In this document: positions 24,328-40,206 of the stretch, in pieces
How positions within the stretch are numbered: position 1 is the first letter of the stretch
Layout: the number at the start of each line of letters is the position of its first letter
From: an uncultured Opitutia bacterium
GTDB taxonomy: Bacteria > Verrucomicrobiota > Verrucomicrobiia > Opitutales > Opitutaceae
NCBI GenBank assembly: GCA_903877135.1
Contig: CAIRCN010000074.1
Coordinates: 1-64,000, forward strand
Length of the DNA: 64,000 nt
Reading direction: 5' to 3'
Made by a program: the position numbers and the translations under genes
Notes under the pieces: model-generated
Told to the model about the DNA's origin: nothing
The model's database searches: none
The model's input: the letters and a program-made list of their open reading frames with translations, nothing else

Positions 24328-24387
24328 GCTGAGGCGGAGTTAACGTATGGATACTCCGTCCACGCGAAGGTGCGGAACGGATCAAAT

Positions 24388-24407
24388 CCCGCGCAAAACC
24401 GCGCGGG
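24388..24407. other. GC-rich hairpin between two co-directional genes
   Basis: cccgcgc and gcgcggg form a perfect 7-base stem around a 6-base loop, between the small membrane gene and the TonB receptor. There is no U-run on the minus strand, so a classical terminator is unlikely. It may modulate read-through or mRNA stability. Confidence 0.35.
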
Positions 24408-24424
24408 CGTGGAAACAAACGGAC

Positions 24425-24739
24425 TCAGCCCACTGGTGGCCCGCGCTCTGGCTGACGGAGGTAGCGGGGCAATGCCAGAAGAATTTCCGCGACCGAGACA
24501 CCCGGGCGTACGTGCCAGACGGCGGCGCCAGCGGCCACGCAGACAGCCCCGACCGCGAGGGCCACACCACTCGCATAGAGCACGACCGCACACTCATGCG
24601 ATTCCTGATCGGAATCGCTGTGCAGCCAGTGGTGAAGCTCCGGGCTGGCCGCCAGAACCGTCAGGAGCAGCACGAGCGCGGCACTACCTGCGGCCAGAAA
24701 CTGGCGGAGGCGCGGAGTGGCGGTTTGGCGAGCGGGCAT
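24425..24739 (-). CDS. Small His/Cys-containing membrane protein
   Basis: A 104-residue protein with two hydrophobic helices. Between them is a polar loop with HHWLHSDSDQESHEC, a string of His, Asp and Cys typical of metal handling and reminiscent of DUF2946-like proteins found beside TonB metal receptors. It is the first gene of a probable two-gene unit with the receptor 97 bases downstream and is divergent from a COG0523 gene. A direct metal role is inferred from loop composition and neighbours. Confidence 0.6.
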   Translation of the reverse strand: MPARQTATPRLRQFLAAGSAALVLLLTVLAASPELHHWLHSDSDQESHECAVVLYASGVALAVGAVCVAAGAAVWHVRPGVSVAEILLALPRYLRQPERGPPVG

Positions 24740-24835
24740 GCAGAGGGAACGGAAGCCACTAAACCGCTTCCGTCAAGTAGCGCGAACGCAGGCTTCCCGC
24801 CGCGCCGGAAACCGGTAGGTTTACCCTCACACCGC
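24740..24835. promoter_or_regulatory. Divergent promoter region of the metal module
   Basis: The 96 bases between the two divergent starts contain an inverted repeat, cggaag (24750-24755) and cttccg (24767-24772). Such a position suits a shared operator (for example Zur or Fur), but it does not match a consensus I can name. Confidence 0.35.
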
Positions 24836-26011
24836 ATGTCCATCGCTTCCACCTCGCTTCCTCCCGTCACCGTGCTCTCCGGCTTCCTCGGCGCAGGAAA
24901 GACTACTTTACTCAACCACCTCGTGGCGCAGGCCGCGGGCCGCCGTCTGGCGCTGGTGGTCAACGACGTGGCGGCGATCAACATCGATGCGCAGGTCGTC
25001 GCCCAGCAGTCCGCGGCGCTCGCACGGGATGGCGGCAGCAGGCGCATCGTGCAACTCGGGCGCGGCTGCGTGTGTTGCTCAATCCGCGATGAGCTGGGCG
25101 AAACGCTCGCCGAACTGTGTGCGACCGGCAGCTACGACCATGTGATCATCGAGGGCAGCGGTGTCGCTGATCCGCGGAGCATCGCGCGGCTGTTCACGCA
25201 GCGCAATGCCTTCGGAAAGAGCTTGGGTCAGTTTGCGCGTTTGAACGCGCTGGTGACGGTGGTCGATGCCGCGGAATTTCTCCGGCGCTGGGATGGCCGG
25301 CCACCGGAGGGCGAGACCCGTGCGCCGGGCGAACCCAAACCGGTATTCGAGTTGCTGGTCGAGCAGATCGAATGCGCCGACCTGCTCGTCCTGAACAAGT
25401 GTGATTTGATTTCGCCCGGGGATGCGGAGCGCGCTGAGGCAGTGCTGAGCGGCTTCAATGCGCGGGCCGAGATCCACCGTGCCGAACGCGGCCAGCTGCC
25501 GGTCGAACTGTTGCTCGACCGTGTGCGATTCGAGGCAGAGAAGACGATGCGCGGCGCGCGCTGGGTGCGGCTGCTGGACGAGGTCACTGCGGGCACAACC
25601 GGCAAGATGGTGGCGCGGCGCGTCGAGCCGGCGCATGAGCTGGCGTTCGGGATTCGCAGCGCGGTTTTCACGGCGAGGCGGGCCATGCGGCGCGCGGAGT
25701 TCGAGGCGGCCGTGGACCGGCTGGCCCCGTCGCTGTTGCGGGCGAAAGGATTTTTCTGGCTTGCAGAGCAACCCGACAACATCGGCTTCCTCTCGGTCGC
25801 GGGCGGATCGGTGCGTTATGATTTTGTCGGCACCTGGGCGGCGGCGTTGCTGGAACGGGGCATTATCAGCCGGGCCGAGATCCCTGCCGCCGCCCAAGCC
25901 TGCTGGGTCGAGCCGAAAGGTGACCGCCGGCAGGAACTCGTCTTCATCGGCGTCGGGCTCGATAATACGGCATTGCAGACGGAGTTGGAGTGCTGTTTGG
26001 CCGTGCCCTGA
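24836..26011 (+). CDS. COG0523/CobW-family metal-chaperone GTPase
   Basis: A 391-residue G3E GTPase. Walker A is GFLGAGKTT at 16-24. The metal-binding CxCC lies in GCVCCS at 77-82, and an NKCD motif gives guanine specificity. The CobW C-terminal domain follows (FGIRSAVFTARRAM; LFWL-like segment GFFWLAEQPDN). Members deliver zinc, cobalt or other metals to enzymes, often under metal starvation. It starts at ATG 24836, divergent from the His/Cys membrane protein and TonB receptor, which suggests a shared metal response. It belongs to a different subgroup from the copy at 30939 (VNDVAAINID here, [10 protein letters not shown] there). Confidence 0.88.
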   Translation: MSIASTSLPPVTVLSGFLGAGKTTLLNHLVAQAAGRRLALVVNDVAAINIDAQVVAQQSAALARDGGSRRIVQLGRGCVCCSIRDELGETLAELCATGSYDHVIIEGSGVADPRSIARLFTQRNAFGKSLGQFARLNALVTVVDAAEFLRRWDGRPPEGETRAPGEPKPVFELLVEQIECADLLVLNKCDLISPGDAERAEAVLSGFNARAEIHRAERGQLPVELLLDRVRFEAEKTMRGARWVRLLDEVTAGTTGKMVARRVEPAHELAFGIRSAVFTARRAMRRAEFEAAVDRLAPSLLRAKGFFWLAEQPDNIGFLSVAGGSVRYDFVGTWAAALLERGIISRAEIPAAAQACWVEPKGDRRQELVFIGVGLDNTALQTELECCLAVP

Positions 26012-26034
26012 CAGGCGCCGAAAATTTAGGAGAA

Positions 26035-27111
26035 ATGATGAAACTGAATCTGCGCAGTGGCGTCGAACTTCCTGTGTCACCGAATTACTCGTTCCGTCCG
26101 ATCCGTAACTGCAAGCGCTGGCTCTTGCTGGCCATTTTCGCGGCGCTGCCCGCCGCAGTGTGTCTTGCCGACGCGGAGCCGCAGCCGGTCAAATTGGATG
26201 AGCTGGTCTACAAAGACGGAGACCGGGTGCGAGGCCATCTTGTGAGCCGGGATGAGCAAATGATCTTGTTTGAGTCCGCGCGATTCGGGTTGCTGCGGGT
26301 TCCAGCCACCGATGCCAAGGTTATGCTGGCCAATCCTCAGCCGTCTGCATCAGGTCCAGCGCCGGCTGCGCCCGAATTCGATAATGAGGCCGAATGGCTG
26401 CTGGCCGAACTCTCTCCGCGGGCACTGGCGCGTTCGCTCAAGGAATTCTTCGGCCCGTGGCACGGGCGGGTTGCGTTTTCTACGGAACTCGTGGCCGAAA
26501 CCAACAACAGCAACATTGTCTCGCTCGATACCAACTTGAAGCGCAAATGGACCAGCGACGAGGTGCAACTCACAGCGCGCTACGACTACAACGATACGAA
26601 TAATGTCGTGACCACCGACACGGTGAAGGCGCTGGGCTCGTGGAGGCACGATTTTAACAAATGGCGGTTTGCCCAATACGTGACGACGCTTGAGTGGGAT
26701 CAAGCCAGCAAACTTAACGGCCTGCCCAACGACTACGTGCTGCTGCAGCAGGAGGTCGGTGTGGGTTTTAACCTGCTGGTGAAGCCGACCCGCAAAATCC
26801 GCGTCGGTGTGGCGGCCGATTTGTTCGATATCTGGAACTCGGCGCCCACACCTGCGCACAATTCACGCGCGGCGACTTCGGTGTTCGAGGAAGTTGATTT
26901 CACTTTGCCTTGGCGGATGACGCTTTCCCAGCGCGGGGTGGGCTATCTTGTGCCTGGCAGACCCGCTGGCTGGGAGAACCGGGTCGAGTTGAACAAGAAG
27001 CTGACCGAAACGTTTAGTGTCTCGATCAAGGATGAAATCCGGCGCAACAGCCCCGACGGCAGCGCGCAGAACTATTCGCGGTTGAAACTGCTTTTCGGAC
27101 TGGATTTCTGA
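26035..27111 (+). CDS. DUF481-like outer-membrane beta-barrel protein
   Basis: A 358-residue protein with an AGGAG ribosome site before tandem ATGs at 26035 and 26038. A signal-anchor stretch (RWLLLAIFAALPAAVCLADA) is followed by a short domain with VYKDGDRVRGHLVSRDEQMILFES, the SH3-like region common at the front of DUF481 proteins. The remainder alternates polar and aromatic residues as barrel strands (WRHDFNKWRFAQYVTTLEWD) and ends in LLFGLDF. DUF481 proteins are outer-membrane barrels of unknown substrate. Its last 40 bases overlap the convergent gene at 27072. Confidence 0.75.
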   Translation: MMKLNLRSGVELPVSPNYSFRPIRNCKRWLLLAIFAALPAAVCLADAEPQPVKLDELVYKDGDRVRGHLVSRDEQMILFESARFGLLRVPATDAKVMLANPQPSASGPAPAAPEFDNEAEWLLAELSPRALARSLKEFFGPWHGRVAFSTELVAETNNSNIVSLDTNLKRKWTSDEVQLTARYDYNDTNNVVTTDTVKALGSWRHDFNKWRFAQYVTTLEWDQASKLNGLPNDYVLLQQEVGVGFNLLVKPTRKIRVGVAADLFDIWNSAPTPAHNSRAATSVFEEVDFTLPWRMTLSQRGVGYLVPGRPAGWENRVELNKKLTETFSVSIKDEIRRNSPDGSAQNYSRLKLLFGLDF

Positions 27112-28514
27112 GCCGCGCCGCGGGCGAGGGCGCCGGAGAGCGCGACCGCTGGACCCCACCAGCCGCGGGCGCGCAGAAATACCGGCCAGTGCGCCGGGCG
27201 CAGCAACGACAGCAGCGCCATGAGCACGCAGGCGACTGCGAAAAAGCGCAGCGTCAGCCAGCCGACGCTGGCCCAGGGACGGCCACCCGCGAGCATAATG
27301 GCCGCCACCACGAGCAGCGGGAACCAGAATTGCCAGCGGGTGAACTCGCGCCCACGGCTTCGCCAGCCTGTCGCCGGTTTGGTCGAAACCAACGGCGCGC
27401 GGTCGATGATGCGCTGCAAAGCCGCCGGCGGGGCGCGCAGTTGCCATGCGACGAGCGACGCCCCAGCCGCGACCAACGCGCTGAGCACGGTCCAGCCGCC
27501 GACAATCCACGGCAGAGCAGGCGCGGTGAGATGGAGTTTATCCGCGAGCCACACGACGGCGGCGTCGTAGGCGCGCATGAGTTCGTCGCCCAAAAGCAGC
27601 CATTGGAGAAAAAATCCCTGTGCTGCGGCCCAAGCTCCGACGAAAGCGCCGCCAAGAACCACTGCGGAAGCGCGCCAGCCGCCGAGTTGCACGGCGCTGC
27701 CGAAAAGCAGGCCCTGCATGACGATCGCAACCATCGGACGCAGGCGGTTGCCGGCGGGTGAGAGCGCCTTGAGTCCGGCGGAGATGAACGGCACCCAGAC
27801 CACGCGGCCGGGCTGCGTGAGCCCGCGTCCGGCATACACCATCATCGCCGCTTGCACACTCGCCATGAGCGTGCCGCGAAACGGCAGTTTCGCGGCGTGC
27901 AACGCGGAGCCGAGGCTCAGCTCGACGGCGCCGGATGCACCGCCGACGAGGCCGAGTTGCGTCCACTCGCCAAAGTCGGCGCAGGCGCGGCGTAATTGAG
28001 CGAGCGCCTCGGGTGCGGCGGCGTCGATACGCAGGTCAAAGCGCTGGCCGAGCTGTTTTCCGATTTCGGCCTCAAGGCCACTGCGCACGGCGAGCACCAC
28101 GATGCCGGGTTGCGCGCGGGTGATTTCCGGCCAGAGGGGCATCAGCCCTTCGCCTCGCGCCTCGAATTTGCCAAATTCGTCGAGCAACAGCAGAGGCGGG
28201 TGTGGTTTCAGCGCCTTGGCCCATTCGATCAGTCGCGCACGGGTGGCGGGATCGAACCGGTAGGGTGGCGAGACCGAAGCGTCGCGTTCGCACCACGGCA
28301 ATTCCTCGGCCATAGCGAGCAAACGTAGGCTATAGGATTGCGCGCCGATGCCGGTGGCGGCGCGAGCTTGTGCGACGGCGAGGAATCCTTCGGCGTGCGG
28401 TTTCTCGGCGGCGAGGGCGGCGAGCAACTGGGTCTTGCCCGAGCCCGGCGCGCCGGTGACTGCGATGAGCAGGCCGGGGCCGGCGGGGGAAAGCGATACG
28501 GATGCGGTGGTCAA
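27072..28514 (-). CDS. THEP1-like NTPase fused to a polytopic membrane domain
   Basis: A 480-residue two-part protein. The first ~180 residues are a P-loop NTPase: GAPGSGKT at 21-28, and LLLLDEFGKFE at 108-118, which matches the DE.GK.E Walker B of the THEP1/NTPase_1 family. From about 190 on there are roughly seven to nine hydrophobic helices, with conserved-looking loops such as LPFRGTLMASVQAAMMVYAGRG and SPAGNRLRPMVAI. The membrane half recalls small-molecule transporter components but cannot be assigned. An N-terminal NTPase joined to a permease-like domain suggests energy-coupled or gated transport. It is last in a run with WD40, TIR and COG0523 genes. Confidence 0.65.
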   Translation of the reverse strand: MTTASVSLSPAGPGLLIAVTGAPGSGKTQLLAALAAEKPHAEGFLAVAQARAATGIGAQSYSLRLLAMAEELPWCERDASVSPPYRFDPATRARLIEWAKALKPHPPLLLLDEFGKFEARGEGLMPLWPEITRAQPGIVVLAVRSGLEAEIGKQLGQRFDLRIDAAAPEALAQLRRACADFGEWTQLGLVGGASGAVELSLGSALHAAKLPFRGTLMASVQAAMMVYAGRGLTQPGRVVWVPFISAGLKALSPAGNRLRPMVAIVMQGLLFGSAVQLGGWRASAVVLGGAFVGAWAAAQGFFLQWLLLGDELMRAYDAAVVWLADKLHLTAPALPWIVGGWTVLSALVAAGASLVAWQLRAPPAALQRIIDRAPLVSTKPATGWRSRGREFTRWQFWFPLLVVAAIMLAGGRPWASVGWLTLRFFAVACVLMALLSLLRPAHWPVFLRARGWWGPAVALSGALARGAAQKSSPKSSFNRE

Positions 28515-28529
28515 GGGGTGAAGTGCGGT

Positions 28530-29531
28530 TCAGGGCGTGCAACGCAGCACATAGAACGCGCCTGTTTCGGAGCCGATGGCGAGGAGCGTGTCATCGGGCG
28601 ACCAGGCGAGTTTGGTCGCGGCGGCAGGCATGCGCACGGTGGCGCGGAGCGGCTGCTGTCGCTCTGGGCTCCAAAGTTGCACGACGCCGTCGGCGCTCGC
28701 GGTGGCGAGGAGACCGTGTCCATGCTGAAACGCCACGGCGCAGACGGGTACGGCGTGCGGCAGCATAGCGGGCTCGCGGCCCTCGGGGCCGTCGCCAGTG
28801 CAATCCCACACGCAGCAGTCGCGGCCGCCGCTGGTCGCGAGCCAGCGTGATGTGTGGTCGAAGGTGAGATGTTTCACTTTGCCCTCGTAGCCGCTCATGT
28901 GGAGCTCGATGTCTTTTTCCGGAATCCAGAGGTGGACACTCGGGTCCTGGTTGCCGGAGACGAGCCACTTGCCGTCGGGCGACCAGATAAGCGCGTGGAT
29001 GCCGTTGGCGTAGGGAAATTCCTTTTGGAGGAGAAAATCGTCGGCGTCCCAGAGCTGCACGCCGCCGAAGTGCGCCGCGGCCACGCAGCCGCCCTGCGGC
29101 TCAAAGGCGAGGGCGGTGATGGTTTTCGCAGCGTCCTTGAAGGTGTGGAGAACGGAGCCGTCGGGGTGAAGCAGGCAGAGTTTGCGTCCGGCGCTCGCGG
29201 CGAAGGTGTTGCCGCCGGGGCGGCAGGCGAGATGTTCAATCCAAGCAGAGCCGAGCGTGGCGGTGGCGGTATGCTGGTCAGCGGCGGCGTCCCAGAATTT
29301 TACGGCGCCGTCCTGACCACCCGAGGCGAGAAGCGGTGCGGCGGCCCACGCGAGGCAGTTGGTGCCGCTGGTGTGGCCGGGGAGATCGTGGCGCTGGGCG
29401 CCGTCGGCAGCGGCGAAGAGCGAAACCGGGCCGGCGGCGGAGGCGGCGGCAAGTTGTGTGCCGTCGGGTGACCAGGCGAGGTCGATGGCGTAGTCGTCGA
29501 GGGTGGCGGCCCAGTGTTTGGTGAGTTGCAT
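28530..29531 (-). CDS. WD40-repeat beta-propeller protein
   Basis: A 333-residue cytoplasmic protein of about seven WD-like blades, with recurring patterns such as LAWSPDGTQLAAAS, LLASGGQDGAVKFWDA, LIWSPDGKWLVSGNQDPSVHLW and LLATASADGVVQLWSP. There is no signal peptide or enzyme domain, so it probably acts as a scaffold. It lies 15 bases upstream of the NTPase-membrane fusion and downstream of a TIR protein, all in one direction. The position next to metal-chaperone GTPases is suggestive, but its role is unknown. Confidence 0.85.
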   Translation of the reverse strand: MQLTKHWAATLDDYAIDLAWSPDGTQLAAASAAGPVSLFAAADGAQRHDLPGHTSGTNCLAWAAAPLLASGGQDGAVKFWDAAADQHTATATLGSAWIEHLACRPGGNTFAASAGRKLCLLHPDGSVLHTFKDAAKTITALAFEPQGGCVAAAHFGGVQLWDADDFLLQKEFPYANGIHALIWSPDGKWLVSGNQDPSVHLWIPEKDIELHMSGYEGKVKHLTFDHTSRWLATSGGRDCCVWDCTGDGPEGREPAMLPHAVPVCAVAFQHGHGLLATASADGVVQLWSPERQQPLRATVRMPAAATKLAWSPDDTLLAIGSETGAFYVLRCTP

Positions 29532-29603
29532 CGGTCAGGCGCTAAGACGCGCAGTTGCGAGGAAACGCCAAGCGGAATCTCGCCGCGCGGTGGCCGGACG
29601 CAC

Positions 29604-30860
29604 TCAATTCTTGGGGACCGCCGCCAGCACGCCCGTTGCGATCTGGTCGCTGAGCGCGGAGGGGTTGGCGCCCGCGACCGGAAACTGCCCGCTCCAGGCG
29701 ACGGAGGCGTCATCGGTTTTCACAAGCCGAACCGTGAGCGTGGCGTTGCCGCCGGTCCGCGTGAGCCAAGCCCCGAGCACGTAGGTGGCGTCGGCCTGAT
29801 GGCCGAGGGCAACGAGCGCCTCGTCGGTCACGGCGGTGAGCGGCTGGGAAACGACGCCGGTTTGGTCGGCGCGCTCGACGGCGATGCGGCCGTAAAGGGG
29901 AGTGAAGACGGCGCCGAGGAATTTGGCGTCGGCCTCGTCGGTGACGCCGAGGGCGAAGGGCACGGCGACGATCTGCTTGTCGCTGCCGGTGCTGTCCTTA
30001 ATCGCTGAGCCAAGGCCGCGGGCGAGGGTCTCGGCAGTGGCTTTGATCGCCTGGCGGGCCTCGGCTTTGTCGGCCGGGGAAAGCTGCACGGTCGGTTCGT
30101 GCGGAGTCGTCCGCTTGTCGTTCGAATCGCAGCGCGTGAGTAACCAAAAGAACACCCAGAGGGAGAGTAGCAAGCGGACCCAGCGGGGTGCGCGTTTGAA
30201 GAGCAGCCAAGCGGCGGTGATCAGCCACCACAGCACCTCGGCGAAGAACCGGAAGCGGTCGCCGAGCGTGTGCGTCTTGTCCAGATGAGGGAAGGCCGGC
30301 ATCGGCGGTGGTTCCTCGCGAGGCGGCGGGCTGCTGGTGGCAAAAGGCGCGCGGGTCGTGCCGGCGCCCGGCTCCGTGCGCAGCGGCGCGGGGTGGATGC
30401 CGGTGGCGAGCCGCCGGGCGAGCGCGTCGAGCGCAGGCGTCGGGGCGCCGCCGGGCACGCGCAGCCATTGGACGGTGAGGAATTTTTCCGGGACGCGCGC
30501 GCCGGCCTCGCTCGTGCCGTCGATGGTGACGGGCAGGAGAAACATGACGTCGTCGGCCATATCGAGCGTGCGCCCAGCAGCGAGGCGCCACTCGCGCCGG
30601 AAGTAGCCCTCCTTGCGGCGCTCGGTGGTCTCCGAGATCACCGGCATGAAATACTCGCAGTCGCGGATCTGGCGGCGGAGCTTCTGGTCCCAGGCGTCGC
30701 CGCCGACCAGTTCGTTTTCGTCATACCAGACGTCGAGACCGGCAGCCTCGAGCGCATCGCGCAGCTGGCGCGCGGCGGCACGATCCTCAGAGGCGTAACT
30801 GATAAAAACGGTCGGCCGCGGAACGGGCGGCACGGCGGCTGGTTCGGAGGAACTGGACAT
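29604..30860 (-). CDS. TIR-domain protein with membrane anchor and TolB-like C-terminal domain
   Basis: A 418-residue protein from ATG 30860. Residues 17-150 are a TIR_2 domain: TVFISYASED at 17-26, then a REW segment with E90 on the helix where NAD-cleaving TIRs hold the catalytic glutamate. Two hydrophobic stretches around 206-243 anchor the protein. The C-terminal ~165 residues (YVLGAWLTRTGGNATLTVRLV, then VAWSGQF) resemble the TolB-like/FlgO-type domain found in signalling adenylate cyclases. The combination suggests a membrane signalling protein. Defence is possible, but no partner immune genes are adjacent. Confidence 0.75.
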   Translation of the reverse strand: MSSSSEPAAVPPVPRPTVFISYASEDRAAARQLRDALEAAGLDVWYDENELVGGDAWDQKLRRQIRDCEYFMPVISETTERRKEGYFRREWRLAAGRTLDMADDVMFLLPVTIDGTSEAGARVPEKFLTVQWLRVPGGAPTPALDALARRLATGIHPAPLRTEPGAGTTRAPFATSSPPPREEPPPMPAFPHLDKTHTLGDRFRFFAEVLWWLITAAWLLFKRAPRWVRLLLSLWVFFWLLTRCDSNDKRTTPHEPTVQLSPADKAEARQAIKATAETLARGLGSAIKDSTGSDKQIVAVPFALGVTDEADAKFLGAVFTPLYGRIAVERADQTGVVSQPLTAVTDEALVALGHQADATYVLGAWLTRTGGNATLTVRLVKTDDASVAWSGQFPVAGANPSALSDQIATGVLAAVPKN

Positions 30861-30938
30861 GGGCGCGCGGGAAAATTCGCTCCGCAACCGAGCGGGGTCA
30901 AGCGGTGAGTCGGCGGCGCGGCGCGCCCGGACAGTGAA

Positions 30939-32342
30939 TCAGGCGAGGCAGGACTTGAAGGCTTCGGTCAGGGCGGGGCGGTCGAGGTTCTTGCCGATGA
31001 AGACGAGGGTGTTAGTGCGCGGGTCGGCGCCCCACTCGCGGTCGAACTTCGCGTCGAAGAGCATGTGCACGCCCTGGAAGACGAGGCGCTTGTTGGTGCC
31101 CTTGACGGCGAGCACGCCTTTCATGCGATAGATGTCGCCGCCCTTGGTACGGAGGAGTTCGCCGATCCACTCATTGAGTTTCTTGCCGTCGAGGTCGCCG
31201 GGGGCGGTGATACCGACGGAGGTGACGGCGTCGTTGTGCTCGTGGGCGGCATGGTAGTCGCGCTGCCAACAGGGACGTGCGGTCTCGCCCATGACGTGGA
31301 TGTGGAGTGGGTCGTGACCGCAGGATTCGAAGACAAGGTAAAAGCCTGGCGCGGTGAGCTTGAGTTGGAAGTGCGCGTGTCCGTCGGCGAGCAGGAGGCG
31401 GTTGAGCGTGGCGCCGGGGACGACGGTGTCGCCGTCCTTGAGGCGGGTTTCCCAGTCGGCGAAGACGAGGGCGGCGGCATCGCGCGCGACCGCGAGGTCC
31501 GGCTCGTCGAGCGATTTCACAGGCATCACGACGACGTCGAGCTCGTTCGGGTTGCCGTGGTGATGGTGCGCGTGGTCGTGCTCGTCGTGCGAGTGGTCGT
31601 GGCCCTCGCGGTCATGCCCGTGATCGTGATGGCAGTGGCCGATGACGAGTTCGTGCGTGCCGGAGGGTAGCGCGTAGACGCCGGCCCATTCGAAGGGGTA
31701 TTCGGGTTCGAGGAACTGCGGGTCGAGTTCGGTGGCGCGGGAGAGGTTGAAGCCGCCGACGTCGAGGACGCGGTCGAGCGGGAGATCGCAGTTCTGCGTG
31801 CGGTGGATTTTCGCGACGGCGTTGATGCCGTGGATGCGGGCCTCGAGGGCGTCGAGGTCGGCGGGTGCGACTAGGTCAGTTTTGTTGAGGAGGATGACGT
31901 CGGCGAAGGCGAGTTGCTTGACGGACTCGTCGCCGGTGTCGAGGTGTTGGAGGACGTGCTTGGCGTCGACGACGGTGACGATGGCGTCGAGGCGGAAGGC
32001 GGTCTTCATTTCGTCGTCGGTGAAAAATGTCTGGGCGACGGGGGCGGGGTTCGCGAGGCCGGTGGTCTCGATGAGGATGCCGTCGAGCTTGTCCTTGCGT
32101 TTGAGGAGGCGGCCGAGGATGCGGATGAGGTCGCCGCGGACTGAGCAGCAGATGCAGCCGTTGTTCATCTCGAAGAGTTCCTCGTCGCTCTGGATGACGA
32201 GCTGGTGGTCGACGCCGACCTCGCCGAACTCGTTTTCGATGACCGCGAGTTTCTTGCCGTGGTTTTCGGTGAGGATGCGGTTGAGGAGTGTGGTCTTGCC
32301 GGCGCCGAGGAAGCCGGTGAGGACGGTGACAGGGATGCTCAT
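30939..32342 (-). CDS. COG0523/CobW-family GTPase with histidine-rich loop
   Basis: A 467-residue G3E GTPase from ATG 32342. Walker A is GFLGAGKTT at 10-18, CICC at 63-66, and NKTD at 153-156. Between the GTPase and CobW_C domains lies a His-rich stretch at about 236-262 with some 15 histidines, a metal-buffering loop seen in zinc-type COG0523 proteins. The CobW_C domain is complete ([23 protein letters not shown]). It sits between the copper efflux genes upstream and the TIR/WD40/NTPase genes downstream, with 78-base gaps on each side. Zinc insertion or storage is the likely role, by family. Confidence 0.9.
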
Positions 32343-32420: not shown

Positions 32421-32903
32421 TCAATCCCGGTCGTTGCCGCCGGGGAAGTTAAAGGCGACATGGGTGAAAACAGTGCCGCGGATCTCGAGGCGGGTGAGCG
32501 TGGCGTCGAAGGCGGGCGTGGTTTTCAACCAATCGGCCTGGGCGTCGAATTGCGCGGTGTTGCCGACGGATTCGCCCGTGGCGGAGTTGGCGACGGCGGT
32601 GAAGCGAAGGGCGTGTAATTTGCCGGCGGCGGTCGTGGTGACGTCGAAAGAGGGCGCGGCAATGCGGATGAAGTTCTCCATTTCGCCGTCGAGGACGTAG
32701 GCGCTCAGGTGGCCGGTCGAGGAGTCGAGCACGAGTTCGAGATGGTAGAGCTCGGCGCCGAGAACGACGGGTGTGCCGCCGTGGGGCGGGTGGTGCTCGT
32801 GTTTAGCCTGGGCAGCATCGTCGAGCACCGTTTCATTTTTGGCGCAGGCGGCGCAGACGCAGAGCAGCGAGCAAAGGAAAAAATAGCGGAGGGGCGCGGT
32901 CAT
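32421..32903 (-). CDS. Lipoprotein-like protein of a copper efflux operon
   Basis: A 160-residue exported protein. The N-terminus MTAPLRYFFLCSLLCVCAACAKN is a signal peptide with a probable lipobox cysteine at position 20. The mature start is metal-ligand-rich (KHEHHPPHGG) and leads into a beta-rich domain (LYHLELVLDSSTGHLSAYVLDGEME). Proteins of this layout accompany heavy-metal RND operons in Planctomycetes and Verrucomicrobiota. It follows copA by 7 bases. Periplasmic copper binding or handover is inferred. Confidence 0.65.
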   Translation of the reverse strand: MTAPLRYFFLCSLLCVCAACAKNETVLDDAAQAKHEHHPPHGGTPVVLGAELYHLELVLDSSTGHLSAYVLDGEMENFIRIAAPSFDVTTTAAGKLHALRFTAVANSATGESVGNTAQFDAQADWLKTTPAFDATLTRLEIRGTVFTHVAFNFPGGNDRD

Positions 32904-32910
32904 GGGCGGG

Positions 32911-34920
32911 TCAAAGCCGAATCCGGCGGAGGCGGAGGGCGTTGGATACGACGGTGATGGAGCTCAGGCTCATGGCGATACCGGCAAACATCGGGTTCAG
33001 GAGCCAGCCAAAGAGCGGGTAGAATGCGCCCGCGGCGAGGGGCAGGCCGGCGGCGTTGTAGAAGAAGGCCCAGAAGAGGTTTTGCTTGATGTTGCGCAGC
33101 ACAGCGCGGCTCAGGTGCACGGCGCGGACGAGCGCGGCGAGGTCGCCTTTGACCAGGACGAGGCCGGCGCTGTGCATTGCCACATCGGTGCCCGTGCCCA
33201 TCGCGATGCCAACGTCGGCGGCGGCGAGGGCGGGGGCGTCGTTGAGACCGTCGCCGGCGAAGATGACGCGTGCGCCGCGCATTTGGTGAACGCGGACGAG
33301 TTCCTGTTTTGTGGCGGGCGTGGCGTCGGCGTGGAAGCCGTCGAGGCCGAGTTGGTCGGCCACGCTTTTGGCGGCGGCGCTGCGGTCGCCGGTGACCATG
33401 ACGATTTTGAGGCCGAGGCGGCGCAGTTCGGCGAGGGCGGCGGGCGCGGAGGTTTTGATCGTGTCGGTGAGAGCGAGCGTGCCGGCGAAGCGCCCGTCGG
33501 CGACAACGCAAACGACGGTCGCGCCCGGCAGCGTGGCATAGCGGGACGTGTCGGGCGCGCGGCCGACGACAACGATGCGGCGACCGACGCGGGCCTGGAC
33601 GCCGGCGCCGGGTGCGGCGGCAAATTCGCTGACCGGCGGGAGCGGCAGGCTGCGTTCACGGGCGGCGGTCACGATGGCGCGGGCAATGGGGTGCTCGCTG
33701 GGCGACTCGGCGGCGGCGGCGAGTTTGAGCAATTCCTCCTCGGTGAAACCTTCCGCGGCGGCAAGCGCGACCACACGGGGGCGACCCTCGGTGAGCGTTC
33801 CGGTCTTGTCGATCAGGAGGGTTGTCGCACCGGAGAGCCGTTCGAGGGCGGCGGCGTCTTTCACGAGCACGCCGGCCTGCGCGCCGCGGCCGATACCGGT
33901 GACGAGCGAAACGGGTGTGGCGAGGCCGAGTGCGCAGGGGCAGGCGATGATGAGGACGGACACGGCGTTGATGAGGCCGTAGAGCCAGCCGCGCTCGGCG
34001 GCAAACAGCGTCCACGAGACGAACGACACGGCGGCGATGCCGAGCACCGCGGGCACGAACCACGCCGACACGCGGTCGGCGAGCCGCTGGATGGGAGCTT
34101 CGCTCTCGACGGCTTGCGCGACGAGGCGGATGATTTGGGCGAGCAGGGTGTCCTGGCCGACGCGCTCGGCGTGGAAAGTGAACGAGCCGGTGGTGTTGAG
34201 GGTGCCGGCGCTGACTTTGTCTCCGGGACGCTTGGCTACCGGGAGCGGTTCGCCGGTGAGCATGGATTCGTCGATCTCGGCGGCACCATCGAGCACGCCG
34301 TCCACGGGGAGGTTTTCTCCGGGCCGGACGCGGACGACTGAGCCGGGGACGAGTTCGGCCACGGGCACGTCGAACTCTTGACCGGAGGAGTCGATCAGAT
34401 GTGCGATCGGCGGGGCGAGGTGCATGAGTGCGCGGATGGCGGCGTCAGTGCGGGAATGGGCGCGTTGCTCGAGGATCTGGCCGAGCAGGACGATAGTGGT
34501 GATGAAGGCGGTGCCCTCGAAGTAGAGCGGCAGACCGTGGTGTGTCTGGTATTCGGCGGGGAAAAACTGCGCGAGGAACACGGCGGCGCCACTGTAGAAA
34601 AACGCGGCGCCGGTGCCCGTGACCGTGAGGGTGAACATGTTCGTGTCGCGCTCGCGGATCGATTTCCACCAGCGGTGGATGAATGGTGCGCCGCACCAGA
34701 AAAAAACGGGTGTGGTGAGCACCAGCTGGAGCCAGGCCGAGAGGTGCGCAGGGAGACGGTGGGCGAGGCCGGGCCAGAGCATCACGCCCATCGCGAGGGC
34801 GAAAACGGGGAGCGTCAGGACAAGGGCGACCCAGAAACGCGGCCAGAGGTAGCGCTCGTGGGGCAGCCCCATGTAAACCGGTGTCGAGGCGTCGGGAGCG
34901 GTATCTTGCGACGAAGGCAT
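32911..34920 (-). CDS. copA: Copper-exporting P1B-type ATPase
   Basis: A 669-residue inner-membrane pump. The CPC metal gate is C327-P328-C329, the phosphorylated aspartate is D371 in [15 protein letters not shown] holds the HP motif, and MVTGD and [10 protein letters not shown] complete the ATP-binding core. FFYNAAG in helix 7 and [12 protein letters not shown] in helix 8 are the YN and MxxSS signatures of Cu(I) pumps (P1B-1). It lacks the N-terminal heavy-metal-associated CxxC domain, so cytosolic delivery must use another chaperone. The ATG at 34920 overlaps the cusA stop by one base, indicating coupled translation. Confidence 0.92.
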
Positions 34921-37900
34921 CAAGCCAAGTTCGCGCGGAGTTGGCGCTCGCGCAACCACGCAAAAATGACCGGGGTGACTACGAGGATGTGGACAAGCGA
35001 GGAGAGCATGCCGCCGACGACGGGGGCGGCGAGCGGTTGCATGACCTCGACGCCGGTGCGCGTGCTCCAGAAAATCGGCAGCAGGCCGGCGACGGCGGTC
35101 GCGACGGTCATCACCTTCGGCCGGAGGCGGAGGCGGGCGCCTTCCTTGATAGCCTCGATGAGGTCGGCGTGGCTAAAGGCGGCGCCGCGAGCGGCGCGTT
35201 TTTTCGCCACGGAGTCCTCTAGGTAGACGACCATCACAACACCGGTCTGAATGGCGGTGCCGAAGAGCGCGACGTATCCGACCCAGACGGCGACGCTGAA
35301 GTTGAAACCCATGAACCATTGCAGGAGCACCCCGCCGGTGAGGGCGAAGGGCACGGCGAGGATGACGTGCGCGGCTTCGGCGGCGGAGTGGAACGTCATC
35401 GTCAGGATCAGGAAGATGATCACGAGCACGGCGGGCATGATGAGGCGGAGCGTCTGGCGGGCGCGGAGCTGGTTTTCATACTGGCCGCTCCACTCGATCG
35501 TCATGCCGGGCTCGAGCTTCACGGCGGCGAGGGCCGCCTTGGCATCGTCGACGAAGCTGCCGAGATCGCGGCCGGTGACGTTGGCCTGCACGAAGACACG
35601 GAGGCGGCCGTTCTCGCTGGCGATTTCGTTGGGGCCGGAGACGCGCGCAATCGTAGCCACCTGCCCGAGCGGAACGTAGGTGCCGGCGGGCGTGGCGACG
35701 GGAATGGCGCCGAGGCGGGCGAGATCCTCGCGGTCGGCGCGCTCGAGGCGCACCTGAACGGGCCAGCGCTCGCGACCCTGGATCGAGGTGGTGACAGTCT
35801 TGCCGCCGAGGCCGGTCTCGGCGACGGCAAGGACATCCTCGGCGCTGAGGCCGTAGCGGGCCATGGCGGCGCGGTCGACGGTGATTTCGAGGTAAGGTTT
35901 GCCCTGCACGCGCGAGGGTGCGACGCCAGTGGCGCCGGGGATTTTTTCGACGAGGGCGGCGATCTCGAAGGCCTTTTGCTGGAGGGCGTCGAGATTGTCG
36001 CTGAAGACCTTGATGCCGAGCTGGGCGCGAATACCAGTCGAGAGCATGAGGATGCGGTTCTCGATGGGTTGGAGAAAACCGGGGACGTAACCGGGGACCT
36101 GGGTGAGCTTGGTGGTGAGTTCGGCGATGAGTTTTTCTTTGGTCATGCCGGGGCGCCAATCCGCGGGCGGCTTCAGCATGATTGTGGTCTCAATCATCTC
36201 GGTGGGCGCGGGGTCGGTGGCGGTGTCGAAGCGGCCGAGTTTGCCGGCGACGGACGCGACCTCGGGCGTGGCGCGAATCGTGCGGTCCTGCCAGGCCATG
36301 ATGCGCTTGATCTCGGTGAGCGAGGTGCTGGGGAGGAGCACGGGCATGAAGAGCAGCGAGCCTTCCTGCAAAGTGGGCATGAACTCGGAGCCGAAGCCGG
36401 ACAGTCGGTGGGAAACTGAGGTCGGGAGACGGGAAAGCACTGAGGCCGGCAGCCCGAAGGCGAGGACGGCGCAGTAGGCTAGGAGGGAGGCGGCGAGGGC
36501 GAGCACGGTTTTGCGGCGGCGGAGCGCCCAGTCGAGAACGGGGTCGTAGAGCGCGAGGAGGGCGCGCATGAGCCAGTTTTTGTTCTCCGCGTGAAACGGG
36601 CCGCGGACGAGCAGGGTGCAGAGCACCGGGACTAGCGTGACGGCGAGGACGGTGGCGCCGACCATCGCGAAGGTTTTGGTCCACGCGAGCGGGTGGAAGA
36701 GTTTTCCCTCCTGGCCGGTGAGCGTGAAGATCGGCACGAAGGCGAGGATGATGATGCCCATCGCGAAAAAGATCGGGCGGCCGACCTGCTGCGAGGCGTC
36801 GAGGGTGACCTGCCAGGTCTCGGGACTGGTGAGCGGGCGGCCGAGTTCGGCTTCCTTGAGCTCGCAGTGGCGGATGACGTTTTCGACCATCACGATCGCG
36901 GCGTCGACAAGCACGCCGATGGCGATGGCGATGCCGGTGAGCGACATGATGTGCGACTGAATGCCGAACTGCTTCATCAAAATAAAGGCGATCAGGATCG
37001 AGGCCGGCAGCGGCAGCGTGACAATGAGGATGCTGCGGAAGTGGAAGAGAAAGATGACGTGCATCAGCGTCACGAGAATGACGGCTTCCCAGAGCGTGTG
37101 CTTCAGGGTGTCGATGGCGCGCGAGATGAGGTCGCTGCGGTCGTAGAACGGCTCGATGGTGAGGCCGCGCGGGAGGCCGGGGGCGATCTGGGAGATCTTC
37201 GCCTTCACGTCCTGGATGACCTGCCAGGCGTTTTCGCCGGAGCGCATGACGACGGTGCCGCCGACCACTTCGTGGCCGTCGACGTCGAGCGTGCCGCGGC
37301 GATAGTCGCCGCCGATCTGCACGGTGGCGACGTCGCGGAGATAGACGGGAGTGCCGTTGTTGACGGAGAGGGCGATGCCATCGAGATCGGCGGCGGTGTT
37401 GATGAGGCCGCGGCCGCGGACGACGAACTCCTGGCCGTTTTCCTCAAGGGTGCGGCCGCCGACGTTGAGGTTGTTCTTCGCGATGGCGTCCATGATCTGC
37501 GCGAGCGTGACGCCGCGGGCGCGCATCCGGAGGGACGAGACCTCGATCTGCCACTGGCGGACGAAGCCGCCGATGCTGGCGACCTCGGCGACGCCGGGGA
37601 CGGCGGCGAGCTGGTAACGGACGAAATAGTCCTGCAACGCGCGCAGCGAGCCGAGGTCGTGCGAACCGGAGTTGTCCTTGAGGTAGTATTGGTAGACCCA
37701 ACCGAGGCCAGTGGCGTCGGGGCCGAGGCGCGGCGTGACGCCCGAGGGGAGGATGTTGCCGAGGTAGTTGAGGCGCTCGAGGACGCGGGTGCGCGCGAAG
37801 TAGTTATCGATTTTGTCGTCGAAGATGACAGTGATAAGCGAGAAGCCGAACATCGAGGTCGCGCGCACGGTGTGAACGCCCGCGAGGCCCTGAAGATTGA

Positions 37901-38111
37901 CGGAGAGCGGGTAGGTGACCTGGTCCTCGATTTCCTGTGGGCTGCGGCCAGCCCAGTCGGCGAAGACGATGACCTGATTCTCGCTGAGGTCGGGGATGGC
38001 GTCGATCGGCACGCGGCGCACGGCGAAGATGCCCCAGCCGAAGAGGAGCAGCGTGCCGCAGAGCACAAGAAACCGGTTCTCGAGCGACCAGCGAATGAGG
38101 CGGTTGATCAT
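34920..38111 (-). CDS. cusA: Copper/silver RND efflux pump, CusA type
   Basis: A 1063-residue RND transporter of normal length. It opens [17 protein letters not shown] and has [20 protein letters not shown], a hallmark of the heavy-metal (HME) subfamily. In the periplasmic part [19 protein letters not shown] resembles the CusA segment with a copper-site methionine. Late helices include [20 protein letters not shown]. It would carry Cu(I)/Ag(I) from the periplasm to outside with CusB and an outer-membrane factor, which is not found nearby. It lies 21 bases after cusB. Confidence 0.92.
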
Positions 38112-38132: not shown

Positions 38133-39707
38133 CTACGGAATCTCCTCGCCGCAGTCGGACATCGCGGAACCGAAGAACGGGTTTTTCAACGGGGCGCTGC
38201 GCTGGAGCCAACGGCCTTGGTGAAGCACGGGCGACATCGGACACTGATAGATTTTTAGGCCGAGGCGGTCGTGGTGCGGATGGACAAGATCCGCGACGGC
38301 GGTGCTCCACGGTTCGAAGGAGCGGCGGGCTTCCTTGAGCGAGGTGCCGAGCGTGAGTGTCGGCAGCGCGAAGCCGCGGGCGGCGGCGGTCGCGGCGGGC
38401 AGGAGTTTTTCGTAACGAACGAAATCGTCGCTCGCGAGGGCGTCGGCGGCGTCGACGGCAGCGTTGGCGAGGGCGACGAGTGCGGCTTCGGTTGGCGCTG
38501 CGACGGGCGCCGCGGGGGCAGGCGCGACGGAGTTGGCCTCACGAGTGAGCTGGGCCTGAGCGTCGATGAGGAGGTTGCCCTCGGTGACGACGTTTTCGCC
38601 CTCGGCGAGGCCGGCGAGGATTTCGACGAGGCCGTCGCCGACGCGGCCGAGCTTCAACGGGCGCACCGCATAGGCGTGGTTGCCGAGGTCCACGTAGGCG
38701 ACGGGACCTGTGCCAGAATCGAGGATGGCGGAGCGCGGGGCGGCGAGGACGGCGGGCGTCTCGATGAGCACTCGACCCTCTGCGAGGACTCGGTGCGGGA
38801 GGTTGTGGGCGACGCCGGCGACGTTGTAGTGGGGATTGGGCAGGACGGCGCGCACGCGGGTGCTCTGGCGCATCTCGTCGAAGTTCGGGTCGATAAACTC
38901 GATGGGCGCGGAGATCACTTCGCCCGGGACGGCGCGGGTCGTGACCTCGACGGTCTGGCCGACGTGCAGCCACGGGATGTCTTGCGCGTAGGCGTCGAAG
39001 ACGAACCACATTCGGGAGAAGTCGCCGATTTCAAAGAGGCGGTCGCTGGTCTGGACGTATTGGCCCTCGTAGACGGATTTGGAGACGACCGTGCCGGCGG
39101 AGGGAGCGCGCACGGTCACAATGGCGGAGGGCTCGCGGGTCTGCTCGAGGCGGGCGATGTCCGCCTCGCTGAGGCCGAGTTGCTGGAGCTGTTCGCGGGC
39201 GGCGGAGAGTTCGGAGACGGTGAACACGAGCGAGCCGGCCTTCAGGTGCTCGACGAAGACGCGCTCGGCCGTGAGCACTTCCGGGCTCCAGAGCGTGGCG
39301 AGAGGGGCGCCGGCCTCGACCGGGGCACCCACGAAGTTGATGAAGAGTTTTTCCACGCGACCAGGCACGCGGGCGGAGAGGATGCGGTGACGGGTGTCAT
39401 CGTCGTCGATGCGACCGGTGACGCGCAAGGTGCGGGTGAGCGGCTGGCGGGCGACGGGCACGCTTTGGACGCCAAGGACATTCACGCTGGTCGGGGAGAG
39501 CGCGACCACGCCCTCGGGCGCCACGGTGGGCGCACCCGTGGCCACGAGGTCCATGCCGCAGACCGTGCATTTGCCGGCGTGGTCGCTCTTGATCCACGGG
39601 TGCATCGGGCACTGGTAGACGGGGGCTCTGGCCGGCGCGACAGTGGGGTGGTCGGCACCGGCGAGCGGGGCGAGGGCAAGCAGTGTGAGGAGCAGGACGT
39701 GTTTCAT
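38133..39707 (-). CDS. cusB: Heavy-metal RND periplasmic adaptor, CusB type, with metal-binding ends
   Basis: A 524-residue membrane-fusion protein with a signal peptide (MKHVLLLTLLALAPLAGA). Residues 31-54 form a heavy-metal-binding domain (YQCPMHPWI and then CTVCGMDL). The central part is a standard adaptor: hairpin, barrel with VRAPSAGTVVSKSVYEGQYV, and RVLIETPAVLAAPRSAILDSG. A C-terminal extension (about 480-524) repeats the metal motif as IYQCPMSPVLHQGRW with downstream Cys, and a helical DUF3347-like segment precedes it. It hands copper to CusA. It lies 37 bases after the small Cys-rich gene. Confidence 0.9.
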   Translation of the reverse strand: MKHVLLLTLLALAPLAGADHPTVAPARAPVYQCPMHPWIKSDHAGKCTVCGMDLVATGAPTVAPEGVVALSPTSVNVLGVQSVPVARQPLTRTLRVTGRIDDDDTRHRILSARVPGRVEKLFINFVGAPVEAGAPLATLWSPEVLTAERVFVEHLKAGSLVFTVSELSAAREQLQQLGLSEADIARLEQTREPSAIVTVRAPSAGTVVSKSVYEGQYVQTSDRLFEIGDFSRMWFVFDAYAQDIPWLHVGQTVEVTTRAVPGEVISAPIEFIDPNFDEMRQSTRVRAVLPNPHYNVAGVAHNLPHRVLAEGRVLIETPAVLAAPRSAILDSGTGPVAYVDLGNHAYAVRPLKLGRVGDGLVEILAGLAEGENVVTEGNLLIDAQAQLTREANSVAPAPAAPVAAPTEAALVALANAAVDAADALASDDFVRYEKLLPAATAAARGFALPTLTLGTSLKEARRSFEPWSTAVADLVHPHHDRLGLKIYQCPMSPVLHQGRWLQRSAPLKNPFFGSAMSDCGEEIP

Positions 39708-40074: not shown

Positions 40075-40206
40075 AGGATGGTTTGAGATGGCGCACCGCG
40101 AAATTGGCAACGCTCATCCAACACTACACCGAGATGCGACAACCCCCTCGGAATATTTCCTGCGGGTTTTTTTGGCGCGTGGGTTATAGTAAGAAAGGTA
40201 AACACA
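40075..40206. promoter_or_regulatory. Divergent control region of copper efflux operon and sigma cassette
   Basis: This 132-base gap faces the efflux operon on one side and the anti-sigma/sensor/sigma genes on the other. It holds a GGAATATTTCC near-palindrome at 40150-40160; GGAA is the usual core of ECF -35 elements in both readings. A T-run and a ttatagt stretch lie nearer the cassette. Autoregulation plus operon control is expected for this kind of layout. Confidence 0.4.

What the first reader, a model, noticed from the sequence alone, without database searches (positions are those of the whole stretch)
27072..32342. COG0523 GTPase - TIR - WD40 - NTPase/permease gene run
A His-rich metal-chaperone GTPase, a membrane-tethered TIR protein with TolB-like domain, a seven-bladed WD40 scaffold and an NTPase-permease fusion lie in one direction with gaps of 15 to 78 bases. 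I know of no described system with this set. It might couple metal status to NAD or stress signalling, or be a defence module embedded in metal genes.
Basis: partly seen in the sequence, partly recalled or inferred. Interest (0 to 1): 0.72.

Follow-up and report, generated by a model that had tools for sequence, protein, structure and literature searches.

The report
Membrane TIR added to metal-chaperone operon
In one family of bacteria, a widely conserved pair of metal-handling genes (a metal-chaperone GTPase and a WD40 propeller protein) has repeatedly gained a membrane-bound TIR protein, a type usually linked to immunity or NAD destruction, which hints at an unexplored link between metal stress and NAD signalling.

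Summary
In detail: COG0523 GTPase, TIR-membrane-TolB-like protein, WD40 protein and NTPase-membrane protein lie head to tail at 32342-27072, gaps 78, 72 and 15 bases. The run is longer: it continues a directon of Cu/Ag-efflux genes from near 40100. The four genes are not a fixed set. COG0523-WD40 is a described pair (Haas 2009, PMC2770081), also directly adjacent in 4 of 4 matching plasmid records. The TIR gene is an optional addition: 34 of 200 family genomes, 21 of them with it within 8 kb of WD40, 21 of 21 on the same strand, 15 within 500 bp, in 11 of 16 genera. Four more sit beside another COG0523 gene. Other TIR-domain proteins of these genomes do not (0 of 39 printed rows). TIR and WD40 trees conflict: distinct TIR lineages occupy the locus, on either side of WD40. 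The NTPase-membrane gene is a second, largely independent accessory (23 of 200). The papers searched do not describe this link. Function is inferred; metal stress, defence, or both remain open.

The parts
30939..32342 (-). COG0523 (CobW-like G3E) GTPase with CICC motif and His/Asp-rich stretch; core gene
   Evidence: Pfam cobW/CobW_C; CICC and His run; 157 of 200 family genomes at E<=1e-100
29604..30860 (-). TIR - Pro-rich linker - two hydrophobic helices - TolB-N/CadC-like domain; accessory gene
   Evidence: TIR_2; model and fold match; 34 of 200 family genomes
28530..29531 (-). WD40-repeat protein, partner gene of COG0523; core gene
   Evidence: WD40; 158 of 200 family genomes at E<=1e-50; directly behind COG0523 in 4 of 4 plasmid records
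27072..28514 (-). N-terminal P-loop NTPase fused to a multi-helix membrane protein; accessory gene of unknown substrate
   Evidence: weak P-loop hits; 23 of 200 family genomes; model failed (mean pLDDT 39.9)
32421..32903 (-). 160-aa small His-containing protein, conserved beside COG0523 in some relatives
   Evidence: neighbours in L128, L134, L135, L136, L138
32911..34959 (-). P-type ATPase with CPC, YN and MxxSS motifs (recalled as Cu+ type)
   Evidence: Pfam E1-E2_ATPase; motifs
34920..38111 (-). CusA-like RND efflux pump
   Evidence: Pfam ACR_tran 8.4e-240; 'CusA-like' by neighbour and recall
38133..39707 (-). CusB-like membrane-fusion protein with heavy-metal binding domain
   Evidence: Pfam HlyD_D23, HMBD
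25990..27111 (+). DUF481 protein, convergent with the run (40-base overlap); recurrent neighbour of TIR/WD40
   Evidence: Pfam DUF481 1.9e-8; neighbour maps
24836..26011 (+). second COG0523 gene, ZigA-like (start codon inferred; the listed ORF begins at 24347)
   Evidence: Pfam cobW 5.8e-46; NCBIfam ZigA 322.4 bits, below its 600 cut-off; sequence

Best explanation
A conserved metal-homeostasis unit, COG0523 metal chaperone plus WD40 propeller, carries an optional membrane-anchored TIR protein. Shown: the TIR gene is recurrently placed beside the WD40/COG0523 genes, co-directional with WD40, and distinct TIR lineages occupy the locus. Inferred: it works with them. Most likely mechanism: the WD40 propeller and/or the TolB/CadC-like domain senses the state of the metal chaperone or of the envelope; on severe metal imbalance or envelope attack the TIR domains cluster at the membrane and cleave NAD+ (or make an ADP-ribose signal), slowing or killing the cell. 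NAD cleavage, the trigger and the topology are inferences. The NTPase-membrane protein is a second optional member, possibly a nucleotide-driven transporter of a metal-related solute (a guess).
For: TIR gene within 8 kb of WD40 in 21 of 34 genomes holding it, 21 of 21 on the same strand, 15 within 500 bp (13 of these 15 at 35-120 bp between matched stretches), 11 of 16 genera. 4 of the other 13 lie beside the ZigA-like COG0523 gene. Control: of 39 other TIR-domain rows printed for the order sample, 0 lie within 20 kb of WD40 on its contig. Two TIR lineages within genus g6 (one clade rejected, p-AU 4.2e-59) both sit next to WD40, one upstream, one downstream, while the WD40 genes of g6, g15 and g117 form one clade. 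EGYFRREW (residues 84-91) is invariant in 17 of 17; PDB relatives include the NAD hydrolase AbTIR. TolB/CadC-like domain. No minus-strand terminator-like site between COG0523 and the NTPase gene; one lies just behind the run at 27029 (pattern match only).
Against: TIR is absent from most genomes with the core pair (34 against 158 and 157 of 200), so the core works without it. 13 of 34 TIR genes are on another contig than WD40; seven of these (five of genus g112, G326, G341) have no core gene in the stretch fetched, though some contigs are short. Two of the 21 linked cases are poor: G256 is a 75-residue piece at a contig end, G345 has a broken frame. All hits lie in one family; none elsewhere in the order sample at E<=1e-8 or on plasmids over more than 24% of the length. 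No Zur-like box found with one proteobacterial consensus. No catalytic test; the TIR part of the model has pLDDT of only 47-87.
Confidence: 0.4

Rival explanations
1. Defence effector lodged in a host operon. The TIR protein is an abortive-infection NADase that uses a stable, expressed core operon as its seat, or guards the metal/envelope machinery against phages or contact weapons; metal status is not its signal.
For: Patchy presence and tree conflict are typical of defence genes. Closest domain models are defence TIRs such as TIR-APAZ effectors. The same genome holds 13 TIR matches in 31 kb on contig C20, with a SIR2-like fusion and an nSTAND ATPase among them.
Against: No whole-protein match to a defence family; PADLOC and NCBIfam hits of the TIR protein cover the TIR domain only. 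The neighbours that I identified in the mapped loci include metal-related and TonB genes and no known defence partner, but many neighbours were not identified. A defence gene without a functional tie need not be co-directional with WD40 in 21 of 21 cases.
Confidence: 0.25
2. Insertion hot spot or shared ancestry: the ends of the core operon tolerate insertions, accessory genes gather there, and TIR has no functional tie to COG0523/WD40.
For: Other accessory genes occur near WD40: the NTPase-membrane gene within 10 kb downstream in 14 of the 23 genomes holding it, an EamA transporter, a BNR protein, TonB receptors in some loci. All within one family.
Against: Strict co-orientation, short gaps, both sides of WD40 used, and four genomes where TIR sits instead beside the other COG0523 gene.
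Confidence: 0.25
3. Non-enzymatic TIR: the TIR domain only assembles a membrane scaffold that recruits the metal chaperone through WD40; no NAD is cleaved.
For: TIR domains can act as assembly modules and WD40 proteins as scaffolds (recalled).
Against: The invariant EGYFRREW block in 17 of 17 suggests conserved chemistry, though the alignments to solved TIRs that were shown end before it.
Confidence: 0.1

Closest known systems
COG0523 subfamily 5 with WD40 neighbour (Haas et al. 2009, PMC2770081, passages seen)
   Same: COG0523 gene with a WD40 gene, in metal/zinc contexts; here 71 of 72 pairs within 15 kb are co-directional, and in 3 of 4 plasmid records the pair lies among metal genes such as zigA, folE, metal transporters or a metal-sensitive repressor (not)
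   Different: The passages seen mention no TIR; here the pair lies behind Cu/Ag efflux genes and has a TIR gene between the two
TIR-TPR proteins of the same genome (contig C20)
   Same: Same TIR type (about 49-57% identical over the TIR part)
   Different: Those scanned have TPR repeats, or SIR2_2, and lie in a TIR cluster, not near WD40
AbTIR and TIR-APAZ NADases (PDB 7uwg, 8g83, 8ifk)
   Same: TIR domain, E 1.7e-6 to 0.006
   Different: No APAZ or Ago in this run; a membrane part and a TolB-like domain instead
CadC (membrane-bound sensor)
   Same: C-terminal domain of the CadC periplasmic/TolB type behind a membrane segment (Z 10.4)
   Different: Output is TIR, not a DNA-binding domain (CadC's is recalled); two hydrophobic helices predicted, so the side on which the domain lies is unknown

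Membership tests
COG0523 / G3E GTPase | CobW nucleotide-binding and C-terminal domains, CXCC motif | tested here: met
   (9.9e-60, 2.9e-24), CICC at residue 63
COG0523 subfamily 5 (Haas 2009) | genomic WD40 neighbour | tested here: met
COG0523 subfamily 5 (Haas 2009) | phylogenetic placement in subfamily 5 | not tested
   the paper's alignment was not at hand
COG0523 subfamily 5 (Haas 2009) | Zur-binding site upstream (several members) | tested here: inconclusive
   best match to one proteobacterial consensus 12 of 15 in 57 fetched regions, 10 of 15 in the window; the box of this phylum is not known to me; two Fur-family genes in the genome
TIR NADase | TIR domain | tested here: met
   TIR_2 3.9e-21
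TIR NADase | catalytic glutamate | tested here: inconclusive
   E84 and E90 invariant in 17 of 17, but the alignments to solved TIRs that were shown end at residues 77-81
TIR NADase | NAD+ cleavage | not testable with these tools
   -
Known TIR defence systems (Thoeris, TIR-APAZ, CBASS-TIR) | whole-protein match to the system's TIR effector | tested here: not met
   hits cover only the TIR domain
Known TIR defence systems (Thoeris, TIR-APAZ, CBASS-TIR) | partner genes next to the TIR gene | tested here: not met
   the three other genes of the run match no partner over their length; the rest of the window was not scanned for them
CadC-type membrane sensor | C-terminal CadC/TolB fold | tested here: met
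   Z 10.4 and 11.3
CadC-type membrane sensor | single membrane helix with periplasmic sensor | tested here: inconclusive
   two helices 199-223 and 226-247 predicted; topology not tested

The most novel reading that the evidence does not exclude
TIR signalling has been recruited more than once as an output arm of the conserved COG0523-WD40 metal-chaperone unit: failure of metal delivery or envelope metal stress is read through the WD40/TolB-like surfaces and turned into NAD+ consumption at the membrane. To my knowledge that would be the first TIR system gated by metal homeostasis rather than by infection.
Probability: 0.28. Interest if true: 0.8.

Novelty: new variant of a known kind. Interest (0 to 1): 0.55.

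Why it matters
COG0523 proteins occur from bacteria to humans (the human member falls in the same subfamily 5), and why prokaryotic members travel with WD40 genes is, as far as I saw, unexplained. TIR domains are known mainly from immunity. A recurrent, co-directional TIR addition to this pair gives a testable handle on both: metal supply or envelope metal stress may be coupled to NAD metabolism, or TIR proteins may guard metal handling.

Tried and rejected
Fixed four-gene system: rejected. TIR (34 genomes) and NTPase-membrane gene (23) co-occur in 7 of 200 genomes, p 0.07; each is found without the other. All four on one contig and strand within about 20 kb: this genome, G080, G154 and G398; directly adjacent only here.

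NTPase-membrane protein identity: Pfam, NCBIfam and PADLOC gave only weak P-loop hits; the model from two sequences failed (mean pLDDT 39.9), so no fold search was made with it. Order and phylum searches found no informative distant homologue. In G196, G202, G333 and G278 only the membrane part matches.

Zur box: a scan with one consensus gave nothing convincing; no chance level was computed. Rfam: 0 hits in the window. Promoter scan: 0 sigma-70-like sites (shuffles 0.9); terminator-like sites 15 on both strands (shuffles 8.8), of which 4 on the minus strand: 37073 inside CusA, 27270 and 27197 inside the end of the NTPase gene, 27029 just behind it.

Transfer versus ancient paralogues: TIR and WD40 trees conflict, and both histories can produce this; not decided. 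The groups for the four AU tests were named after the trees were seen, so the p values are optimistic.

Fold rows that do not fit TolB (ethanolamine ammonia-lyase and tRNA-synthetase domains, Z 7.7-10.2) also appear; the TolB/CadC/FlgT/PelC group was taken because it leads both lists.

Plasmids: no full-length TIR orthologue (1 record, 24% of the query).

Counts: print only part of their rows; I added two WD40 rows not printed there (G181, G316), and G330's WD40 (48 bp from TIR) is. TIR set of 34 = 33 plus G154. Distances are between matched stretches. Left out of the TIR tree: L150 (G345, broken frame), L142 (G256, fragment), L173. L173 also left out of alignment A2; 12 of the 16 non-window rows of A2 repeat genomes already seen under G handles or are otherwise's set, so A2 was used only for the model and for invariance. 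Pairs on different contigs cannot be judged (57 of 139 COG0523/WD40 pairs); likewise some of the 39 control rows are on other contigs than WD40.
Full report
What is there. The window belongs to a genome of the family coded f1 in the genome search; named relatives found with the TIR protein are Opitutaceae/Opitutia/Verrucomicrobia MAGs, among them one Lacunisphaera and one Opitutus. On the minus strand, 32342-27072, lie COG0523 GTPase, TIR protein, WD40 protein and an NTPase-membrane protein, gaps 78, 72 and 15 bases. Upstream on the same strand, without a large gap, are a 160-aa protein, a P-type ATPase, CusA and CusB and a small protein that I take for YHS-like (family recalled). The P-type ATPase carries CPC, YN and MxxSS motifs, which I recall as marks of the Cu+ type. 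On the plus strand, running towards the end of the run, are a second COG0523 gene of the ZigA type and a DUF481 protein; behind them, on the minus strand, a TonB receptor.

The TIR protein. It has an N-terminal TIR domain (residues 18-135), a Pro-rich linker, two hydrophobic helices (199-223, 226-247) and a C-terminal domain (about 292-418) that folds like the N-terminal domain of TolB and the CadC periplasmic domain (Z 11.3 and 10.4). The C-terminal domain is modelled with pLDDT 78-97 by blocks of ten, the TIR part with 47-87. EGYFRREW at residues 84-91 is invariant in 17 of 17 sequences. Sequence relatives of known structure are AbTIR, other bacterial TIRs and TIR-APAZ effectors.

The core pair. 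In a sample of 200 genomes of the family the WD40 protein is found in 158 (E<=1e-50) and the COG0523 protein in 157 (E<=1e-100). Of 139 genomes for which both places were listed, 82 have them on one contig, 72 of these within 15 kb, 71 of the 72 on one strand; 10 are farther apart and 57 are on different contigs and cannot be judged. Outside the family, the WD40 protein matches 4 plasmid records at 31-33% identity (E<=1e-30); in all 4 the gene directly before it is a COG0523 gene like the window's main one (44-66% identical; in one record only a C-terminal piece is annotated). In 3 of the 4 the surroundings hold metal genes as annotated (zigA and a nickel transporter; ABC transporters for metals and a metal/formaldehyde-sensitive repressor; folE, metal P-type ATPase and metal ABC permease); in the Paraburkholderia record they do not. 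Haas et al. 2009 (PMC2770081, passages seen) state that prokaryotic COG0523 subfamily 5 clusters with WD40 genes and znuABC and that several members are predicted to be downstream of a Zur site. So the COG0523-WD40 half of the finding is known.

The TIR as accessory. A search with the linker-to-C-terminus part finds 33 of 200 family genomes; one more, G154, is known from the full-length search. In the order sample of 223 genomes, matches at E<=1e-8 occur in 11 genomes, all of this family. Of the 34 genomes, 21 have the TIR gene within 8 kb of WD40, 21 of 21 on the same strand, 15 within 500 bp (G330). These belong to 11 of the 16 genera (g1, g2, g3, g6, g10, g15, g87, g100, g102, g107, g117); G256 (g117) is only a 75-residue piece and G345 has a broken frame. 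Four genomes of g14 have TIR beside the ZigA-like COG0523 gene, three of them with DUF481 on the other side, the fourth on a 3-kb contig. G254 has only DUF481 beside it; G241 is at a contig start with a TonB receptor downstream; five genomes of g112, G326 and G341 show no core gene in the stretch fetched, some of which are short. In a scan of named genomes, 14 of 17 loci have WD40 or a COG0523 gene in the flank, one only DUF481, one only a TonB receptor, one none; 12 of the 17 have the contig lengths of loci already counted, and of the 5 new ones 4 have WD40 and 1 DUF481 only. As a control, of 48 TIR rows printed, 9 are within 20 kb of WD40: the seven orthologues and one further TIR each in G196 and G202 about 12 kb away; the other 39 are not, some of them because they lie on other contigs.

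Distinct lineages at one locus. The TIR tree (36 rows) puts the window's TIR with those of L127 and L131 (genus g6), genus g15 and L128 (g1), all upstream of WD40; three other g6 genomes (L060, L061, L064) carry a distant TIR, sister to that of g3, downstream of WD40. One clade for g6 is rejected (p-AU 4.2e-59), also for g6 with g15 (9.9e-47), for g1, g100, g102, g107 and g14 together (4.7e-46), and for the two g1 rows (0.007). In the WD40 tree g6, g15 and g117 form one clade (100/100) and the window's WD40 falls with g1, g14, g97, g100, g102 and g107 (91/94). So the TIR gene came to, or was sorted at, the same spot more than once; transfer and old paralogues with losses are both possible, and the groups were chosen after seeing the trees.

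The NTPase-membrane gene. It is found in 23 of 200 family genomes: in 14 within 10 kb downstream of WD40 on the same strand, in one at 19 kb, in one 1 Mb away, in six on another contig, and in one no WD40 row was listed. Seven genomes have both TIR and this gene, against 3.9 expected (Fisher p 0.07). It is thus a second accessory of the same locus. Its identity is open: weak P-loop hits and a failed model.

Mechanism. Shown are gene linkage, orientation, recurrence and domain make-up. Inferred are that TIR acts with WD40/COG0523, that it cleaves NAD+ or makes a signal, and that metal or envelope stress is the trigger. The CadC/TolB-like domain makes an envelope sensor plausible, but with two helices predicted it could also face the cytoplasm. 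Defence use and a mere insertion hot spot are the main rivals and are not excluded.

Novelty. Library searches for COG0523 or CobW with WD40, for a looser set of TIR, NADase, metal, operon and COG0523 (10 of 22,809 listed), for TIR domain with WD40 and Verrucomicrobia (41) or with TolB (67, 12 of 18 listed), for Opitutaceae with TIR domain (68) and for CobW with TIR domain (69, 0 papers) gave no description of a TIR linked to COG0523-WD40. Only listings were seen, except for passages of PMC2770081, PMC6689063 and PMC7159879. I rate it a new variant of known kinds: a known metal pair with a TIR addition not reported in what I searched.

Noticed in passing
G000 contig C20, 86597-117819 (loci L160, L161): 13 TIR_2 matches in 31 kb on one strand: TIR-TPR proteins, a SIR2_2-TIR fusion and an nSTAND1 ATPase among the six ORFs scanned; several TIR matches lie close together also in G154, G066 and G080. 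Looks like a large TIR conflict cluster.
   Followed up: partly
L132, L137, L139, L140 (genus g14): TIR-TolB gene sits beside the ZigA-like COG0523 gene (with DUF481 on the other side in three of four) instead of near WD40.
   Followed up: partly
L060 4907-6328, L064 6968-8173 and others: BNR-repeat protein, in these two with a CDCC motif, next to the NTPase-membrane gene.
   Followed up: no
L055 14676-16760, L060 7447-9507: TonB receptors near the TIR gene with a CGxRMDPP stretch that reminded me of the copper receptor OprC/NosA (recalled, not tested).
   Followed up: no
G196 C1:1896374-1896979 and G202 C17:939837-940916: A second TIR of similar kind about 12 kb on the other side of WD40 in both g15 genomes.
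   Followed up: no
window 24300-24840: Divergent region between a TonB receptor and the ZigA-like COG0523 gene, a likely place for a metal-responsive promoter; no known box or riboswitch found.
   Followed up: partly
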